From Thermanaerothrix daxensis (GTDB taxonomy: Bacteria; Chloroflexota; Anaerolineae; Anaerolineales; Anaerolineaceae): a stretch of DNA of 64,000 nt. The notes beneath the pieces are model-generated. The model was not told where the DNA came from, searched no databases, and saw only the letters and a program-made list of their open reading frames with translations. A program made the position numbers and the translations under genes. This document shows, piece by piece, positions 22,183 to 33,617 of this stretch; the stretch's first letter is position 1, and every line of letters begins with the position of its first letter. Location of the stretch: positions 372,001 to 436,000 of the forward strand of contig NZ_LGKO01000005.1 of the NCBI RefSeq assembly GCF_001306145.1, read 5' to 3'.

Positions 22183-22674
22183 TCACCCCTGCGGGAAGTG
22201 TTGGTGGCGTTGGACGTAAGCCACAATGCCGCCCGCTTCCAGGATCTGGCGGAAGAAAGGGGGTGGGGGAGGCAATTGCCAATGTGTCTCGCCCACCTGA
22301 AATTGCCAGGTGTGGGGATCGAGCACGGCCAAATCGCCATCATGAACCGCTGCGACCACCTCGGCGGCTTCAAAGAGGGGCAGACCGAGGTTGATGGCAT
22401 TGCGGAAAAAGATACGGGCAAAGGACACGGCAATGATTGCCGCGATGCCGCGTTTTTTGAGCGCCTCCGCTGCATATTCACGTGATGAACCACACCCGAA
22501 GTTGCGCCCGGCGACAATAATATCGCCTGCTTGGGCCTGTTCGGCAAAATCAGGCCGGGCCTCAATGAAGGCCGCTGAGGCCAGGTCGGCATTAGGGCGC
22601 ATGTAGGGGGCATAACGCCCCGGTACAATCTGATCGGTATCCACGTTATCGCCAAACTTCCAGATGCGTGCCAT
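22183..22674 (-). CDS. hacB: Homoaconitase (aconitase-superfamily) small subunit
   Basis: A 163-residue swivel subunit of the LeuD/HacB type. It forms a heterodimer with the 4Fe-4S large subunit encoded 22 bp upstream, isomerising homocitrate to homoisocitrate. The start MARIWKFGDNVDTDQIVPG and the conserved NFGCGSSREYAAEALK are readable. The substrate loop after VPGRY reads APYMRP, which resembles homoaconitase more than isopropylmalate isomerase as I remember these families. The position behind homocitrate synthase supports homoaconitase. A dual role in leucine synthesis cannot be excluded. Confidence 0.82.
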   Translation of the reverse strand: MARIWKFGDNVDTDQIVPGRYAPYMRPNADLASAAFIEARPDFAEQAQAGDIIVAGRNFGCGSSREYAAEALKKRGIAAIIAVSFARIFFRNAINLGLPLFEAAEVVAAVHDGDLAVLDPHTWQFQVGETHWQLPPPPPFFRQILEAGGIVAYVQRHQHFPQG

Positions 22675-22696: not shown

Positions 22697-25113
<2,417 letters not shown>

Positions 25114-25128
25114 TTAGGGGATAAATGA

Positions 25129-25161
25129 AAACTCCCTCACCGGTGTCTGGTGAGGGAGTTT
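25129..25161 (-). terminator. Attenuator terminator of the lysine operon leader
   Basis: On the minus strand a perfect 13-bp stem (25149-25161 with 25129-25141, aaactccctcacc and its complement) and a 7-base loop are followed by TTTTCATTT. It lies between the leader ORF and homocitrate synthase, 28 bp before the ATG, so it must be bypassed for expression. The loop and stem top (25138-25150) can instead pair with 25193-25206, across the leader stop codon, giving a 13-bp antiterminator with one bulged base. Confidence 0.88.
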
Positions 25162-25197
25162 GTGGGCTAAGATATAGGGCAAGCCGAACCCGCCAGA

Positions 25198-25272
25198 CTA
25201 CCGGTGGGGTGTCCGCTGGATCTTCTTGCCCTTCTTCAATTCCGAAATCAAGGTGGGAATAGCGTTGTTCAT
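25198..25272 (-). CDS. Lysine-rich leader peptide of the hcs operon
   Basis: A 24-codon ORF with the peptide MNNAIPTLISELKKGKKIQ followed by RTPHR. Codons 13, 14, 16 and 17 are all AAG lysine. The start lies 11 bases after a consensus -10, so the transcript begins about five bases before the ATG and there is no room for a ribosome site. The stop codon sits inside the antiterminator strand. A ribosome reaching the stop hides that strand and lets the terminator form; a ribosome stalled at the lysine codons leaves it free. Lysine-responsive leader attenuation has been reported for the Thermus thermophilus lysine cluster. Confidence 0.8.
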   Translation of the reverse strand: MNNAIPTLISELKKGKKIQRTPHR

Positions 25273-25283
25273 GATTGGGCGCG

Positions 25284-25312
25284 ATTATAGGGACTTGAGC
25301 CGATTTTGTCAA
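25284..25312 (-). promoter_or_regulatory. Consensus promoter of the lysine leader
   Basis: On the minus strand TTGACA (25307-25312), 17-bp spacer and TATAAT (25284-25289): perfect hexamers and spacing. The expected start, near 25277, is five bases upstream of the leader ATG. Confidence 0.9.
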
Positions 25313-25342: not shown

Positions 25343-25371
25343 TTGACAGCCCGAGAAGTACGTAGTAAATT
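25343..25371 (+). promoter_or_regulatory. Promoter of the arginine leader
   Basis: TTGACA (25343-25348), 17-bp spacer, TAAATT (25366-25371). The expected start, near 25378, is two bases before the leader ATG. The two divergent -35 boxes are only 30 bp apart. Confidence 0.72.
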
Positions 25372-25379
25372 TATGCCCA

Positions 25380-25469
25380 ATGTTTAGCCAGACGTTCTTC
25401 ACCCTGCCACGTACCCGTCGTCCAAAGCCCACCTCTGCGCGGGAAGGCGGGGTTTTGTTGTTTGGTTAG
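25380..25469 (+). CDS. Arginine-containing leader peptide of the argG-lysW operon
   Basis: A 29-codon ORF with the peptide MFSQTFFTLPRTRRPKPTSA followed by REGGVLLFG. Arg codons are 11, 13, 14 (all CGT) and 21 (CGG). It begins within a few bases of the predicted transcript start, so it is effectively leaderless. Codons 21-25 contain the segment 25442-25454 (ggaaggcggggtt), which can pair with the 5' arm of the downstream terminator (12 of 13 positions, one U-G). A ribosome stalled at Arg13-14 leaves that segment free; a ribosome at the stop covers or passes it. I infer arginine-responsive attenuation. Confidence 0.75.
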   Translation: MFSQTFFTLPRTRRPKPTSAREGGVLLFG

Positions 25470-25505
25470 CCCGTTGAGTCGTTGAATCCTAACACCAGCC
25501 CAAAG

Positions 25506-25540
25506 GACCCCTCCTTCCCAACAAGGAGGGGTCTTATCTT
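25506..25540 (+). terminator. Attenuator terminator before argG
   Basis: A perfect 11-bp stem, gacccctcctt (25506-25516) with aaggaggggtc (25523-25533), a six-base loop and TTATCTT. It ends 20 bp before the argG ATG and lies inside the leader transcript. The T-run is imperfect, so termination may be partial. Confidence 0.8.
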
Positions 25541-25559
25541 ATATCCTCAGGAGGACGTG

Positions 25560-26819
25560 ATGGTAAAAGCGCAAGTCAAACGAGTCGTGCTGGCCTACTC
25601 AGGGGGACTGGATACCTCGGTCATTGTTCCCTGGCTACGTGAAAACTATGGGTGCGAAGTGGTTTGCTTCACGGCCGACATCGGCCAGGGTGAGGAACTG
25701 GAGGGACTGGAAGAAAAGGCATTGCGTAGTGGCGCCAGCCGTTTGATCATCCGTGATTTGAAAGAAGAATTTGCGCGCGATTACCTGTTCCGTGTGCTGA
25801 GGGCGGGGGCTGTTTATGAGCGCAAATACTTGCTGGGTACGTCCATCGCGCGACCCCTCATCGCCAAACATCAGGTGGAAGTGGCCCATGAAGTAGGGGC
25901 AGATGCGGTGGCGCACGGTGCGACTGGCAAGGGGAACGATCAAGTGCGTTTTGAATTGACCTACATGGCCTTGGACCCGCGTCTGAAGGTGATTGCTCCC
26001 TGGCGCGAATGGGACATTCGCTCCCGCCAGGACGCCATCCGTTACGCTCGCGAGCGCAATATCCCGGTGACAGCTACTGAAAAGTCCATTTACAGCCGCG
26101 ATCGCAACCTGTGGCACCTTTCGCACGAGGGTGGGCCTCTGGAGGACCCGTGGAATGAGCCGGAAGAGGGGATGTACCTAATCTCAACGTCCCCCGAGAG
26201 TGCCCCGGACGAGCCGGAGTACATCGAGATTTCTTTTGAATCTGGGACGCCAGTGGCAGTCAACGGGGTGACCATGTCACCGGCTCAAATCATTAACCAC
26301 CTTAACGCAGTAGGCGGGCATCACGGCATCGGGCGGGTTGATCTGGTGGAGAGCCGTCTGGTGGGGATGAAGTCGCGGGGAGTGTATGAGACGCCGGGTG
26401 GCACCATACTGATGGCCGCTCACCGTGAATTGGAATCGCTGGTTCTGGATCGCGACACACTGCACTTCAAGGACCTGGTGGCGCTCAAATACGCTGAACT
26501 GGTTTACAGCGGTATGTGGTTCTCGCCCTTGCGCGAAGCCCTGGACGCTTTTGTGGATAGCACCCAGGGACCGGTAACGGGCACGGTGCGGCTCAAACTC
26601 TACAAAGGCAACATCATTGTGGCCGGTCGCACCAGTCCCTTCAGTCTGTACCGCGAGGATTTTGCCACGTTTGGACAGGACGATGTGTACAACCAATCCG
26701 ACGCAAAAGGATTTATCAACCTGTTTGGCCTACCGTTGAAAGTGCGTGCGCTGAACGGCCTGCCGGTTTCGGGGTTGGAGATGCCCAAGCCGGATTACAG
26801 CCGCTTCAAACGGGATTGA
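25560..26819 (+). CDS. argG: Argininosuccinate synthase
   Basis: A 419-residue cytoplasmic enzyme joining citrulline and aspartate with ATP, the penultimate step of arginine synthesis. The PP-loop is [28 protein letters not shown] and the [12 protein letters not shown] region are conserved. ATG 25560 has AGGAGG six bases upstream; the longer frame to 25482 would run through the terminator hairpin and is rejected. It is the first gene of an eight-gene operon ending in lysK. An arginine leader peptide and terminator precede it. Confidence 0.95.
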
Positions 26820-28528: not shown

Positions 28529-29410
28529 ATGAACCATCATCGTTTGCGTATTGGTGTGCTCTATTCGCGTTTACGGGTGGAGGAGAAGTGGATTTTTGCG
28601 GCACTTGAACAGCGCGGTGTGGATTATGAGCGCTTGGACGACCGTTTTGTCCACTTCGACCTGGATAACCCTGGTCCGTGGCTTCAGTACGATGCCATTC
28701 TGGAGCGCAGTATCAGTTACGCCCGTGGCCTTTATGCTCTGCGGGTGCTCAATGCCTGGGGCGTGCCCACGGTGAACACCGCGGCAGTGGCGGAGGTGTG
28801 CGGGGATAAACTGGCCACCACTGCAGCGCTGACACGTGCGGGCATCCCACAGCCGCGCACGGTGGTGGCTTTTACAGCGGAGGCAGCCTTAGAGGCCATT
28901 GAACAATTGGGGTATCCGGTAGTGCTCAAGCCCGTAGTGGGTTCATGGGGACGCCTGCTGTCGAAAATCAATGATCGTGATGCGGCGGAAGCCATTCTGG
29001 AACACAAGGAAGTCTTGGGGTCTTACCAACACCAGATCTTTTACATCCAGGAGTACATTGAAAAGCCGGGACGCGATATTCGGGCTTTTGTGCTGGGAGA
29101 TCGCACCGTGGCAGCCATTTACCGCAAATCGGAGCACTGGATCACCAACACGGCGCGAGGTGGCCAGGGTGAGATCTGTCCGATTACCTCAGAACTGGAA
29201 GAACTCTGTGGGCGGGCAGCAGCAGCCGTTGGCGGAGGGGTGTTAGCCATTGATATTTTGGAGCACCCTGAGCGGGGCCTTCTGGTTAACGAGATTAACC
29301 ACACCATGGAATTCCACACTACGGTACCTACCACAGGTGTGGACATTCCGGGCATGATCGTGGATTACGTCCTGGCGGTGGCGCGCCAGCGTGTGGGGGT
29401 GGTGGCATGA
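28529..29410 (+). CDS. lysX: LysW ligase LysX/ArgX (ATP-grasp)
   Basis: A 293-residue RimK-type ATP-grasp ligase that attaches alpha-aminoadipate (LysX) or glutamate (ArgX) to the LysW C-terminus. It has the [19 protein letters not shown]-binding strand-loop, NTARGGQG, and the metal and substrate segment [12 protein letters not shown] near the C-terminus. Only one such ligase is present in the window, so it may be bifunctional or glutamate-specific; I cannot decide from sequence. The arginine leader favours at least an arginine role. The stop overlaps the lysY start (ATGA). Confidence 0.9.
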
Positions 29411-30441
29411 TCCGTGCAGCCATTGTTGGGGCTTCCGGCTATGCAGGTGGCGAGGTCTTGCGCCTGCTTCTGGACCACCCGGAGGTTGAGGTGGTACAGG
29501 TGACTTCACGTCGCCATCTGGGGGAGTATGTTTACCAGGTCCATCCCAACCTGCGCAAGCGCACCTCGCTTAAATTTAGCGATCCCGCCGGACTTGAAGC
29601 GGTGGATGTTCTCTTTCTGGCGCTCCCCCATGGCGAGGCACAGCACCAGATTGACCGTCTGGCAGGTTTGGCCACCTACATCATTGATCTCTCTGCCGAC
29701 TTTCGCCTTAAGCGCGCCGAAGATTACGAACACTGGTACGGAGCGCCACATGCAGCCCCTCACTGGTTAGGGCGCTTTGTTTACGGCCTACCCGAACTTC
29801 ATCGCGAAGATCTGCGCGGTGCTCACTACGCCAGCGGCGTGGGTTGTAATGCCACTGCAGCCAACCTGGCACTCTGGCCGCTCGTGCGTGCCGACTTGCT
29901 GGATACGAGTCAGCCGGTAGTGGTAGAAATCAAAGTTGGATCTTCGGAGAGCGGCGCTGAAGGGAACGTCGGAACTCATCATCCGGAGCGCAGTGGGGTC
30001 ATTCGCACCTTTTCCCCCTTTGGTCATCGCCACACTGCAGAGGTGATCCAGGAGATGGGGTTGGAACATGTGGTGCTGACCATGACGGCAGTGGACCTGG
30101 TGCGTGGGGCCCTGGCAACAGCCCACGCGCGGGTGAAAGCCGGGGTAAGCCAACGCGATCTGTGGCGCGCTTATCGTGCAGTGGTCAATGAAAACCCGTT
30201 TTTGCGGTTGGTCAAAGAGCAGCGGGGCATCTACCGTGTGCCGGAGCCCAAAATTCTGGCCGGTTCCAATTACGCTGATTTGGGGTTTGAATTGGATGAA
30301 CGCACCGGGCACGTGGTTTCCATGTGTGCCCTGGATAACCTGATGAAAGGTGCGGCGGGTTCTGCCGTACAGTGCATGAATTTGATGTTGGGGCTGGATG
30401 AGACCTTGGGGCTGACATTCCCCGGCCTACATCCCATTTAA
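29407..30441 (+). CDS. lysY: LysW-gamma-aminoadipyl/glutamyl phosphate reductase
   Basis: A 344-residue NADPH-dependent reductase of the ArgC family. The Rossmann start is [18 protein letters not shown] and the catalytic Cys is in [13 protein letters not shown]. In LysW operons this enzyme reduces the acyl phosphate made by LysZ to a semialdehyde. Translational coupling to lysX by a four-base overlap supports assignment to LysW substrates instead of free N-acetylglutamyl phosphate. It may serve both ornithine and lysine branches. Confidence 0.9.
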
Positions 30442-31315: not shown

Positions 31316-32530
31316 ATGAGCACATTGACGATGGTGGACTCGATTCAGGCCGTTGAAGGTCGTCACACCTCGGGCCTCTATAATAAGCAGCCGATCACCC
31401 TGGTAAGAGGGGAAGGGGCCTGGCTGTGGGATGAGCGCGGACGAAATTACATTGATTGCACCAGTGGTCAGGGCGTGGCCAATTTAGGACACGGTCGCAT
31501 TGAAATTGCACGGGCCATTGCCGAGCAAGCCCAGCGTCTGATTACCTGCCCGGAGACCTTTTTTAACGATCAGCGTGCGGCACTTATGGAGGAACTCACC
31601 GCATTAACGCCGGGATTGGAGCGGGTGTTTTTCTGCAACTCCGGCACTGAGGCGGTGGAAGCGGCGCTTAAATTCAGCCGATACAGTACCGGGCGCAAGC
31701 AAATTGTGGCTACCATGCGCGGGTTTCATGGGCGGACGATGGGGGCGCTCTCGGCAACCTGGAATAAAAAATACCGCGAGCCGTTTGAGCCGCTGGTGCC
31801 GGGATTCATTCATGTGCCCTATAACAATCTAGAGGCCATGCAGACGGCAATCGGGGAAGATACGGCGGCGGTCATCCTTGAAGTGGTACAGGGCGAAGGG
31901 GGAGTTTACCCGGCAACACCCGATTACCTGCTCGGGGTTCAGGCACTGTGCCGCGAACGCGGCGCCCTGCTGATCATTGATGAGGTGCAAACTGGCTTTG
32001 GACGCACCGGACGCATGTTCGCCTATCAACATTATGATCTGCAACCCGATTTACTTTGTGTGGCTAAGTCTCTGGCTGGGGGACTGCCCATGGGGGCTGT
32101 GCTGATGGGTGAACGGGTACGCGCACTCAGCCCGGGCTTGCACGGTTCGACATTTGGTGGCAATCCCCTGGCATGCGCCGCTGCTCGCGCGACTCTGCGC
32201 ATTTTACAGCGTGAGGATTTACCGGCCCAGGCAGCGCGTAAGGGCACCTATTTCATGGAACGCTTGCGTCAAATCCGCTCACCGCTTATTCGTGAGGTGC
32301 GAGGCCTGGGACTGATGGTAGGTGTGGAGTTGAAGCAAAAGGTGGCCCCTTACCTGAGCCTGATGCAAGAGCGGGGCGTTCTGGCGCTTTCGGCAGGGCT
32401 AAATGTCATCCGCTTTTTGCCGCCCCTGGTGATCCGTGAAGCCCAACTGGATCGGGTGGTTGAAACGCTGGAAGAAGTGCTCGCCTTGGGGCCGGATGGG
32501 GCTGAGGAGCAAGGCCAGAATGGAAGGTGA
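31316..32530 (+). CDS. lysJ: LysW-lysine/ornithine aminotransferase
   Basis: A 404-residue PLP-dependent class III aminotransferase of the ArgD/LysJ type that aminates the LysW-bound semialdehyde. The conserved elements are FFCNSGTEAVEAALKFSR, the LLIIDEVQTGFGRTG strand with the PLP-interacting Asp, and LLCVAKSLAGGLPMGAV with the Schiff-base Lys. GGAGG lies eight bases before ATG 31316; a GTG three bases earlier is also possible. The end overlaps lysK by 11 bp. Confidence 0.9.
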   Translation: MSTLTMVDSIQAVEGRHTSGLYNKQPITLVRGEGAWLWDERGRNYIDCTSGQGVANLGHGRIEIARAIAEQAQRLITCPETFFNDQRAALMEELTALTPGLERVFFCNSGTEAVEAALKFSRYSTGRKQIVATMRGFHGRTMGALSATWNKKYREPFEPLVPGFIHVPYNNLEAMQTAIGEDTAAVILEVVQGEGGVYPATPDYLLGVQALCRERGALLIIDEVQTGFGRTGRMFAYQHYDLQPDLLCVAKSLAGGLPMGAVLMGERVRALSPGLHGSTFGGNPLACAAARATLRILQREDLPAQAARKGTYFMERLRQIRSPLIREVRGLGLMVGVELKQKVAPYLSLMQERGVLALSAGLNVIRFLPPLVIREAQLDRVVETLEEVLALGPDGAEEQGQNGR

Positions 32531-33617
32531 GGGTATTTTGCAGGCAACTCGCTTGACCACCCTGGTGGGGTTGTTAGAGCGCTACAGCCCGACCGGGAAT
32601 GAAGCCGAGGCTGTGGCCTGGTTGGTGGGGCGCATGCGCGCGCTGGGGTTTACGGGTGCCCGGGTGGATGAGATCGGTAACGCAGTCGGGTGGATGGGTG
32701 CAGGACCTTACCAGGTGCTGCTCCTGGGACATATTGATACCGTGCCGGGAGAAATCCCGTTGCGTCTGGAAGCAGGCCGGCTCTATGCCCGGGGGGCTGT
32801 GGATGCCAAGGGGCCGCTGGCGGCTTTTGTAGATGCGGTTGCCCAGGTGGGGGAGATGCCAGGTGTGCAGTGGGTCGTCATCGGGGCCGTTGGCGAAGAG
32901 GGGGATTCACGGGGGGCCCGCTTCCTGTTACCCCACTATCGCCCCCAAATGCTGATCATCGGCGAACCGAGCGGCTGGGAACGCCTGACCCTGGGTTACA
33001 AGGGGAGCGCCTGGGTGCAGGTTACTGCTCGACGTACTCTGGCCCATACGGCGGCACTAGCGGAAAGCGCCTGTGAAGCAGCAGTGGCGTTTTGGGAACG
33101 TCTTAAGCAGGCAGTGCTGACTTTTAATCAGGGCCGCTCCGGCATATTTGATCAATTGCTGGCAACTTTGCGCCAGATGCATTCCGATTCAAATGGATTT
33201 GAGGAGCGGGCTCAATTGCAAATTGGCTTGCGACTTCCGCCGGGGTTGGAGCGGCCGGAATTAGAGGCCTTGCTTACCGCGGCCGCAAACGGCGATACCT
33301 GGTTAATTGAAGATTTTATCCCCGCGTATCGAGCAGAGAAAAATACCCCGCTCGTGCGAGCCTTCCTGGCGGCCATTCGGGCTCAAGGGGGGCGGCCCTC
33401 ATTTACGCTTAAATCGGGCACGTCAGATATGAACCTGGCCGCACCGGCCTGGGGATGCCCCACTCTGGCTTATGGGCCGGGCGATTCCAGCCTGGATCAT
33501 ACACCGTACGAACACATTGAGGTGGAGGAGTATCTTAAGGCCGTTGAGGTTCTATCCCATGCCCTGCGCGGTCTGGCTTCAATCTTCAATGATCACTCCG
33601 GGAACAATTTCGCATAG
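32520..33617 (+). CDS. lysK: LysW-lysine/ornithine hydrolase
   Basis: A 365-residue M20-family zinc peptidase that releases lysine or ornithine from LysW. The metal ligands are in LLGHIDTVPGE, ARGAVDAKGPLAAF, GAVGEEGDSRGARF and the late SLDHTPYEHIEVEEYLKAV. ATG 32520 lies inside the end of lysJ and gives the normal N-terminus; the longer frame from 32436 does not. It is the last gene of the operon. Its 3' end overlaps the convergent GH1 gene by 25 bp. Confidence 0.9.
   Translation: MEGEGILQATRLTTLVGLLERYSPTGNEAEAVAWLVGRMRALGFTGARVDEIGNAVGWMGAGPYQVLLLGHIDTVPGEIPLRLEAGRLYARGAVDAKGPLAAFVDAVAQVGEMPGVQWVVIGAVGEEGDSRGARFLLPHYRPQMLIIGEPSGWERLTLGYKGSAWVQVTARRTLAHTAALAESACEAAVAFWERLKQAVLTFNQGRSGIFDQLLATLRQMHSDSNGFEERAQLQIGLRLPPGLERPELEALLTAAANGDTWLIEDFIPAYRAEKNTPLVRAFLAAIRAQGGRPSFTLKSGTSDMNLAAPAWGCPTLAYGPGDSSLDHTPYEHIEVEEYLKAVEVLSHALRGLASIFNDHSGNNFA

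What the first reader, a model, noticed from the sequence alone, without database searches (positions are those of the whole stretch)
25343..25559. Arginine leader attenuator upstream of argG and the LysW operon
TTGACA-17-TAAATT promoter, 29-codon ORF with Arg-Thr-Arg-Arg (CGT codons), and an 11-bp terminator ending 20 bp before argG. Segment 25442-25454 inside the ORF pairs with the terminator 5' arm (25506-25518) at 12 of 13 positions. Stalling at Arg13-14 ends ~20 nt before that segment. This implies that arginine level gates not only argGH but all six lysW-lysK genes.
Basis: partly seen in the sequence, partly recalled or inferred. Interest (0 to 1): 0.85.

Follow-up and report, generated by a model that had tools for sequence, protein, structure and literature searches.

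The report
Arginine leader-peptide switch before arginine operon
A short gene with arginine codons and a conditional stop signal sit just in front of an arginine-making operon, so that ribosomes stalling for lack of arginine probably let the operon be read; the arrangement recurs in many related bacteria and has a lysine counterpart facing the other way.

Summary
Before argG lie a promoter, a 29-codon ORF with Arg-Thr-Arg-Arg (CGT codons), a 13-pair terminator, and an alternative pairing of the terminator's 5' arm with a segment 18 nt after the last Arg codon (-27.4 kcal/mol). In 83 of 96 distinct argG upstreams, the window's own included, a short ORF with at least 3 Arg in 5 codons precedes a terminator, against 4 of 480 shuffles. 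The antiterminator pairing co-varies between lineages (0 of 10,000 permutations). Arg-cluster codons are 78% CGT against 14% in argG. The ORF is probably leaderless. Best reading: ribosome-mediated transcription attenuation sensing arginyl-tRNA. The genes behind argG are better read as the LysW-type arginine operon, probably shared with lysine in this genome, which shows no ArgJ or DapB match and one ligase and one kinase. A lysine-codon leader of the same design faces the other way before homocitrate synthase. My searches of open-access papers found no arginine leader of bacterial arginine biosynthesis. No expression data exist; the mechanism is inferred from sequence, and the protector pairing is weakly supported.

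The parts
25343..25371 (+). Arg-side promoter TTGACA-17-TAAATT
   Evidence: promoter to start spacing in relatives
25380..25469 (+). 29-codon arginine leader ORF, probably translated from a leaderless or nearly leaderless transcript
25410..25421 (+). control codons CGT ACC CGT CGT (Arg11, Thr12, Arg13, Arg14)
   Evidence: sequence; cluster in relatives
25423..25430 (+). segment 1, candidate protector CAAAGCCC that pairs with 25450-25457; would lie under a ribosome stalled at Arg13-14
   Evidence: local fold (15 of 100 shuffles fold as well); permutation test weak, (665 of 10000)
25440..25457 (+). segment 2, antiterminator strand, 18 nt after the last Arg codon
25504..25535 (+). intrinsic terminator hairpin; its 5' arm plus loop (25504-25522) is the partner of segment 2
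25560..26819 (+). argG, argininosuccinate synthase
   Evidence: NF001770, TIGR00032
26841..28289 (+). argH, argininosuccinate lyase
   Evidence: TIGR00838
28325..28495 (+). lysW/argW carrier protein
   Evidence: TIGR01206
28526..29410 (+). LysX/ArgX-type ligase, the only one found in this genome; substrate-loop signature Thr-Thr, not Asn
29407..30441 (+). argC/lysY reductase
   Evidence: TIGR01850
30441..31295 (+). lysZ/argB kinase, the only one found in this genome
31313..32530 (+). lysJ/argD aminotransferase
32511..33617 (+). lysK/argE hydrolase (start codon uncertain)
   Evidence: NF003367
25284..25312 (-). Lys-side divergent promoter TTGACA-17-TATAAT
25198..25272 (-). 24-codon lysine leader ORF MNNAIPTLISELKKGKKIQRTPHR; Lys-Lys-Gly-Lys-Lys codons at 25236-25222
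   Evidence: K-rich ORFs before hcs in 11 of 19 family loci
25188..25203 (-). Lys-side antiterminator strand, pairs with 25161-25142
   Evidence: -17.1 kcal/mol, 8 of 1000 shuffles as good
25129..25161 (-). Lys-side intrinsic terminator
23929..25101 (-). homocitrate synthase (lysS/hcs), followed by hacA 22697-23935 and hacB 22183-22674

Best explanation
It is a leader-peptide transcription attenuator that senses charged arginyl-tRNA and controls an argG-argH-lysW-lysX-argC-lysZ-lysJ-lysK operon. RNA polymerase starts just upstream of, or at, the leader AUG, and a ribosome starts on the nearly leaderless RNA. If arginine is plentiful the ribosome runs to the stop codon; segment 2 is covered by the ribosome or paired with upstream leader sequence, the terminator forms and transcription stops before argG. 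If arginine is scarce the ribosome waits at CGT-ACC-CGT-CGT, masks segment 1 and leaves segment 2 free, 18 nt downstream. Segment 2 then captures the terminator's 5' arm and loop as soon as they are made, and transcription continues. Shown here: anatomy, recurrence in relatives, codon bias, and covariation of segment 2 with the terminator arm. Inferred: translation, stalling, read-through, and co-transcription of the eight genes. The protector pairing (segment 1 with 2) is plausible but weakly supported.
For: 83 of 96 distinct argG upstreams (the window's own included) have an Arg-cluster ORF before a terminator, 4 of 480 shuffles do. In the same test the next residue, Val, reaches 34 of 96, probably as a shifted-frame shadow of CGT repeats (inference), Leu 18 and Lys 2. 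Segment 2 lies a median 19 nt after the last Arg codon in 86 leaders. Segment 2 against terminator arm plus loop: 46 cluster representatives sum to -775.6 kcal/mol with their own arm against -633.4 (sd 15.6) with permuted arms, 0 of 10,000. Arg-cluster codons: 218 of 281 CGT against 14% in argG. A promoter is recognised in 69 of 83 leaders, 51 with 10 nt between -10 box and start, and no Shine-Dalgarno-like run in 83. Combination unique to the two leaders in the window. A lysine leader of the same design faces it.
Against: No expression data. In the large LPRTRR group (40 leaders) the segment 2 pairs are nearly invariant, so they say little, and the duplex there is weaker than in the window. 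The first, narrower pairing tests were weak: median z -0.8, 23 of 86 leaders at rank 5 of 100 shuffles or better; and own against permuted arms without the full loop, although 0 of 5000 permutations reached it, differed little in the mean (-12.2 against -11.8). The loop was added after I had read the sequences. The protector pairing is not significant (665 of 10,000; median z -0.49, 12 of 86 at rank 5 of 100 or better), and the whole-leader fold uses a different upstream partner. 13 of 96 upstreams fail the automatic test (one search lists them); by eye 6 of them carry the ORF and an imperfect hairpin, 7 do not convincingly. The window terminator's T tract is interrupted. In the phylum sample 15 of 27 newly fetched loci lack the leader. 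An Arg leader before the genome's own argF-like gene was not found.
Confidence: 0.87

Rival explanations
1. Nascent-peptide arrest: the leader peptide itself (LPRTRRPKPTS) acts in the ribosome tunnel and senses free arginine, as the fungal arginine attenuator peptide does (recalled), rather than codons sensing tRNA charge.
For: In the LPRTRR group (40 leaders) the peptide around the cluster is conserved.
Against: Between groups little beyond the Arg cluster is kept (leaders, position tallies). The strong CGT preference fits decoding, not peptide identity. The stall to segment-2 distance is nearly constant.
Confidence: 0.07
2. Dual sensing: the leader reads both arginine and lysine, because a Lys codon follows the Arg cluster (RRPK, RRKK) and the operon may serve both pathways.
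For: 35 of 86 leaders have Lys within three codons after the cluster, 32 at position +2. One ligase and one kinase were found for both pathways.
Against: Lys is absent from that place in 51 of 86; the +2 ones belong largely to one related group and may reflect RNA pairing constraint (inference). Lysine has its own leader on the other strand.
Confidence: 0.12
3. The ORF is chance and the hairpin is a constitutive terminator of a short transcript, with argG driven by another promoter or a repressor such as ArgR.
For: No translation or transcript evidence; promoter-like sites alone are no more common than in shuffles. ArgR boxes were not searched.
Against: Recurrence far above shuffles and Arg specificity, codon bias, covariation.
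Confidence: 0.04
4. A metabolite riboswitch or T-box controls the operon and the ORF is incidental.
For: Structured leader, z -4.7.
Against: No Rfam family reaches its gathering score in the leader, nor in the argG or hcs leaders of 16 further loci (the one hit is a SAM riboswitch elsewhere in L039).
Confidence: 0.02

Closest known systems
Ribosome-mediated attenuators of amino-acid operons (E. coli trp and his, recalled; M. tuberculosis ilvB1, passages of PMC13236596)
   Same: Leader ORF with codons for the pathway's amino acid, intrinsic terminator, competing antiterminator set by where the ribosome stops.
   Different: Arginine is the sensed amino acid; near-leaderless start; one of a divergent pair with a lysine leader.
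Lysine leader peptide of the Thermus thermophilus lys cluster (recalled: Tsubouchi and others 2005; no paper on it seen here)
   Same: Leader-peptide attenuation before homocitrate synthase of a LysW-type pathway; resembles the minus-strand Lys leader here.
   Different: Different phylum; recalled as controlling lysine, not arginine; according to PMC10433800 (passages) Thermus makes arginine by the classical route.
orf34-speF leader of Salmonella (PMC6386406, passages)
   Same: Short upstream ORF whose consecutive arginine codons sense arginine and steer alternative mRNA structures.
   Different: Controls ornithine decarboxylase (polyamines); acts through Rho, translation and RNase G decay; that paper reports no intrinsic terminator in the leader. 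Here the target is arginine biosynthesis and there is an intrinsic terminator.
Fungal arginine attenuator peptide (recalled)
   Same: Short upstream ORF that reports arginine level on an arginine-biosynthesis gene.
   Different: Translational stalling by the peptide in eukaryotes; no terminator.
Leaderless polycysteine ORFs of mycobacteria (Canestrari 2020; only its title seen, in a reference list shown; the paper is not held)
   Same: Leaderless short ORF whose codons sense an amino acid.
   Different: Cysteine, in mycobacteria; mechanism not checked here.

Membership tests
Ribosome-mediated transcription attenuator | Short leader ORF with a run of codons for the end product of the operon | tested here: met
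   83 of 96 upstreams against 4 of 480 shuffles; Arg 83, next residue 34
Ribosome-mediated transcription attenuator | Intrinsic terminator between leader ORF and first gene | tested here: met
   25504-25535; 87 of 96 upstreams have one in the last 230 nt
Ribosome-mediated transcription attenuator | Antiterminator pairing that excludes the terminator, at a set distance from the control codons | tested here: met
   -27.4 kcal/mol in the window; 0 of 10,000 permutations; median 19 nt; narrower tests weaker
Ribosome-mediated transcription attenuator | Protector (1:2) pairing that is masked by the stalled ribosome | tested here: inconclusive
   Hairpin present in the window, but permutation 665 of 10,000; pairs conserved but mostly invariant in the LPRTRR group
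Ribosome-mediated transcription attenuator | Read-through rises on starvation for the amino acid | not testable with these tools
   Needs transcripts
Leaderless leader peptide | Transcription start at or within a few nt of the start codon, no Shine-Dalgarno | tested here: inconclusive
   Inferred from -10 to start spacing (10 nt in 51 of 83; 8 nt in the window) and 0 of 83 Shine-Dalgarno-like runs; no start site mapped
LysW-dependent arginine pathway (ArgX type) | LysW carrier, LysX/ArgX ligase and LysYZJK beside arginine genes, no acetyl route | tested here: met
   Operon order and families; no ArgJ match; one kinase and one ligase found. ArgA was not searched, so the acetyl route is excluded only as far as ArgJ and a second kinase go
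LysW-dependent arginine pathway (ArgX type) | Ligase uses glutamate | tested here: inconclusive
   Substrate-loop signature Thr-X or Ser-Leu in 52 of 57 argG-linked ligases (5 not read) against Asn-Ser in 15 of 15 second copies; the NTARGG motif does not separate them; activity not testable here
T-box or riboswitch | Rfam family match | tested here: not met
   Only a tRNA in the window at gathering scores
speF orf34 (DUF2618) | Conserved core with two arginines, upstream of speF | not tested
   Pfam was not run on the leader; by eye the core quoted in PMC6386406 is absent, and the gene downstream is argG

The most novel reading that the evidence does not exclude
One intergenic region carries two back-to-back, near-leaderless attenuators, one reading lysyl-tRNA and one reading arginyl-tRNA, which gate the two arms of a single shared LysW pathway. 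In this organism, whose only LysX-type ligase and LysZ-type kinase found lie behind the arginine leader, plentiful arginine would also shut the last steps of lysine synthesis, a cross-control that the lysine leader cannot override. Across Anaerolineae this would be a lineage-wide arginine attenuator of arginine biosynthesis, a class I did not find described for bacteria in the papers searched.
Probability: 0.5. Interest if true: 0.75.

Novelty: new variant of a known kind. Interest (0 to 1): 0.66.

Why it matters
Leader-peptide attenuators are textbook for Trp, His, Thr, Phe and the branched-chain amino acids (recalled). I found no arginine one acting on bacterial arginine biosynthesis in the papers searched. 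Here it recurs in many Anaerolineae, a group for which my two searches on Chloroflexi leader peptides listed no study of such leaders, with an unusual CGT codon preference and an apparently leaderless start, and it is paired with a lysine counterpart. It gives a direct handle on how a shared lysine/arginine pathway is balanced, and a pattern (near-leaderless start, control codons, terminator) by which other leaders in Chloroflexota can be sought.

Tried and rejected
Riboswitch or T-box: rejected, no Rfam match at gathering score in the leaders. Antiterminator tests with only the terminator arm plus half the loop gave weak effects; including the whole loop gave the strong result. That change was made after I had read sequences, so one search is a refined test, not a first one. 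The protector pairing was tested and is not convincing. RNAalifold within groups gave mostly invariant pairs, and no structure for the 1:2 zone of the 13-leader group. An Arg leader before the genome's own argF-like gene was sought and not found. The NTARGG motif of the ligases does not separate the two kinds.

Rows dropped: 6 loci with under 230 nt upstream and 8 duplicates before (110 to 96); loci without both an Arg ORF and a perfect-stem terminator before (leader part). Four later loci (L123, L126, L129, L130) were offered to because one search had shown Arg ORFs in them; L123 is a duplicate of L072 and L129 is not among the 86 kept. One search printed 27 of 86 leaders. One search kept the best 80 of 558 confirmed stretches. 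Three of 18 upstream ligase matches were too short or weak for the tree.

Literature: an arginine or Chloroflexi leader was sought (open-access PMC only). PMC4833913 and PMC8632094, passages seen, do not describe one. Lopatovskaya 2010 and Canestrari 2020 are not held, so an earlier description in other papers is not excluded.

Full report
What is there. The window lies in a 3.0-Mb genome (G000) whose nearest named relative by ArgG is an uncultured Thermanaerothrix sp. (L031, 99% identity), family Anaerolineaceae, phylum Chloroflexota. Promoter TTGACA-17-TAAATT (25343-25371), ORF 25380-25469 (MFSQTFFTLPRTRRPKPTSAREGGVLLFG), and a 13-pair terminator (25504-25535) are present. The claimed 13-nt pairing is 11 Watson-Crick plus one G-U; 0 of 2000 shuffles reach 12 of 13. 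The best full duplex is 25440-25457 with 25504-25522, -27.4 kcal/mol, 1 of 1000 shuffles as good. With a ribosome taken to mask 12 nt past the last Arg codon, the RNA made up to the terminator loop folds into this antiterminator (-32.4 kcal/mol); once the 3' arm is present, the minimum-energy fold is the terminator, so the choice would have to be kinetic, as in known attenuators (recalled).

Is it more than chance. Of 96 distinct upstreams of at least 230 nt, 83 hold an ORF of 10-45 codons with at least three Arg in five codons followed by a terminator; 4 of 480 dinucleotide shuffles do. Counting every amino acid the same way, Arg reaches 83, Val 34 (probably the shifted frame of CGT-CGT), Leu 18, Lys 2. 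Of the 13 that fail, six (L040, L065, L071, L084, L093, L107) show by eye the Arg ORF and an imperfect hairpin; seven do not convincingly. The window itself, scanned for short ORFs 4-13 nt after a promoter-like box, gives 39 rows on both strands, and only this ORF and its minus-strand neighbour are followed by a terminator. Promoter-like and terminator-like sites taken alone are near chance frequency.

How it is built in relatives. The Arg cluster is written R-x-R-R, R-R-P-R-R and the like. Counting back from the last Arg of the cluster, 81 of 86 leaders have Arg one codon before it and 78 three codons before it. The cluster uses CGT for 218 of 281 Arg codons (78%), while argG of the same loci uses CGT for 14% and CGC for 62%; other leader codons up to the cluster end in T in 205 of 723. 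Segment 2 starts a median 19 nt after the last Arg codon. Testing own against permuted terminator arm plus loop on 46 representatives gives -775.6 against -633.4 (sd 15.6) kcal/mol, 0 of 10,000 permutations. Narrower earlier tests were weaker and are reported as such: 23 of 86 leaders at rank 5 of 100 or better; 0 of 5000 permutations but a small mean difference. The protector pairing is visible in the window, 25423-25430 with 25450-25457, but its permutation test is not significant (665 of 10,000). In 69 of 83 leaders a promoter is recognised, with 10 nt between -10 box and start codon in 51 (8 nt in the window), and none of 83 has a Shine-Dalgarno-like run: I infer a leaderless or nearly leaderless start.

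What the operon does. The genome gives no ArgJ match (the control search rings in 10 of 14 genomes) and no DapB match (control 12 of 14), one LysZ/ArgB kinase and one LysX-type ligase; it is 97% complete by the table. ArgA was not searched. In 62 of 80 named loci argG is followed by argH, lysW and lysX; of the other 18, eleven have less than 1.7 kb after argG and seven (L032, L033, L034, L036, L043, L052, L086) have at least 3.4 kb and show only argG-argH. Eighteen loci have an upstream match to LysX, 53-60% identical except L077 (26%), 15 of them with hcs, hacA or hacB upstream too. A midpoint-rooted tree of 73 ligases puts the window's with the 57 argG-linked ones and 15 second copies apart (support 0.485 on one side, 1.0 on the other). 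At the loop that PMC10433800 (passages) describes as deciding substrate, where Sulfolobus LysX has Asn-Thr and ArgX Gly-Phe, the 15 second copies have Asn-Ser, while of 57 argG-linked ones 49 have Thr-X, 3 Ser-Leu and 5 were not read; I placed that loop by the alignment. So the operon behind argG is best read as the LysW-type arginine operon. In this genome, with one ligase and no DapB match, it probably serves lysine too, as PMC10433800 reports of the single enzyme set of Thermococcus kodakarensis for lysine and ornithine.

The lysine counterpart. On the minus strand, promoter TTGACA-17-TATAAT, ORF 25272-25198 with Lys-Lys-Gly-Lys-Lys, an antiterminator pairing (-17.1 kcal/mol, 8 of 1000 shuffles as good), and a terminator precede hcs. 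Of 19 loci with this hcs, the window's own included, 11 have a K-rich short ORF upstream, several reading GKEKKPD or AKDKKPD, and 8 have none, one of these (L168) because its upstream DNA is not held; in 6 of the 11 the scan also finds a terminator between such an ORF and hcs (counted from its rows). Of 11 more distant hcs loci one has a K-run, not convincing. Three relatives with a distant hcs (about 35% identity) show by eye AK(A/S)KR leaders before a terminator.

Range. One search found argG in 158 of 201 phylum genomes; loci were fetched for the best 30, of which 27 were new. The seven of these from the same order have Arg ORFs, five more (L130, L131, L132, L135, L136) look positive by eye, and 15 do not (L133, L134, L137, L138 read; L139-L149 judged from the listing only). 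Some of the negatives seem to have an acetyltransferase-like gene directly before argG (by eye; not tested).

Verdict. It is a new variant of a known kind: ribosome-mediated attenuation with arginine as the signal, apparently leaderless, and paired with a divergent lysine leader. Searches of open-access papers gave no arginine leader of bacterial arginine biosynthesis; the nearest is orf34 of speF (PMC6386406, passages). Most subscription papers are not in that library. All function is inferred from sequence.

Noticed in passing
25102-25312 (-): Divergent lysine leader: consensus promoter, ORF with KKGKK, antiterminator and terminator before homocitrate synthase; same design as the arginine leader.
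   Followed up: yes
L044, L067, L106, minus-strand leaders before the distant hcs: Short ORFs with AKAKR or AKSKR followed by a similar CGCGCTCTCC hairpin: perhaps lysine leaders of a second homocitrate synthase type.
   Followed up: partly
18 of the loci L050-L108, upstream of argG: Two LysX-type ligases in one locus, with different substrate-loop signatures (Asn-Ser in the 15 read, against Thr-X in most argG-linked copies), suggesting separate lysine and arginine ligases in these Anaerolineae.
   Followed up: partly
86 leaders: Strong CGT preference in the Arg control codons (78% against 14% in argG), unexplained; could be tRNA sensitivity or RNA structure.
   Followed up: partly
L134, L137, L138 upstream of argG: By eye an acetyltransferase-like reading frame directly precedes argG and no Arg leader is seen; the leader may go with the LysW-type route.
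   Followed up: no
L170-L174: Five carbamoyltransferase-family hits in the genome, two of them adjacent and next to what looks like a carbamate kinase gene.
   Followed up: no
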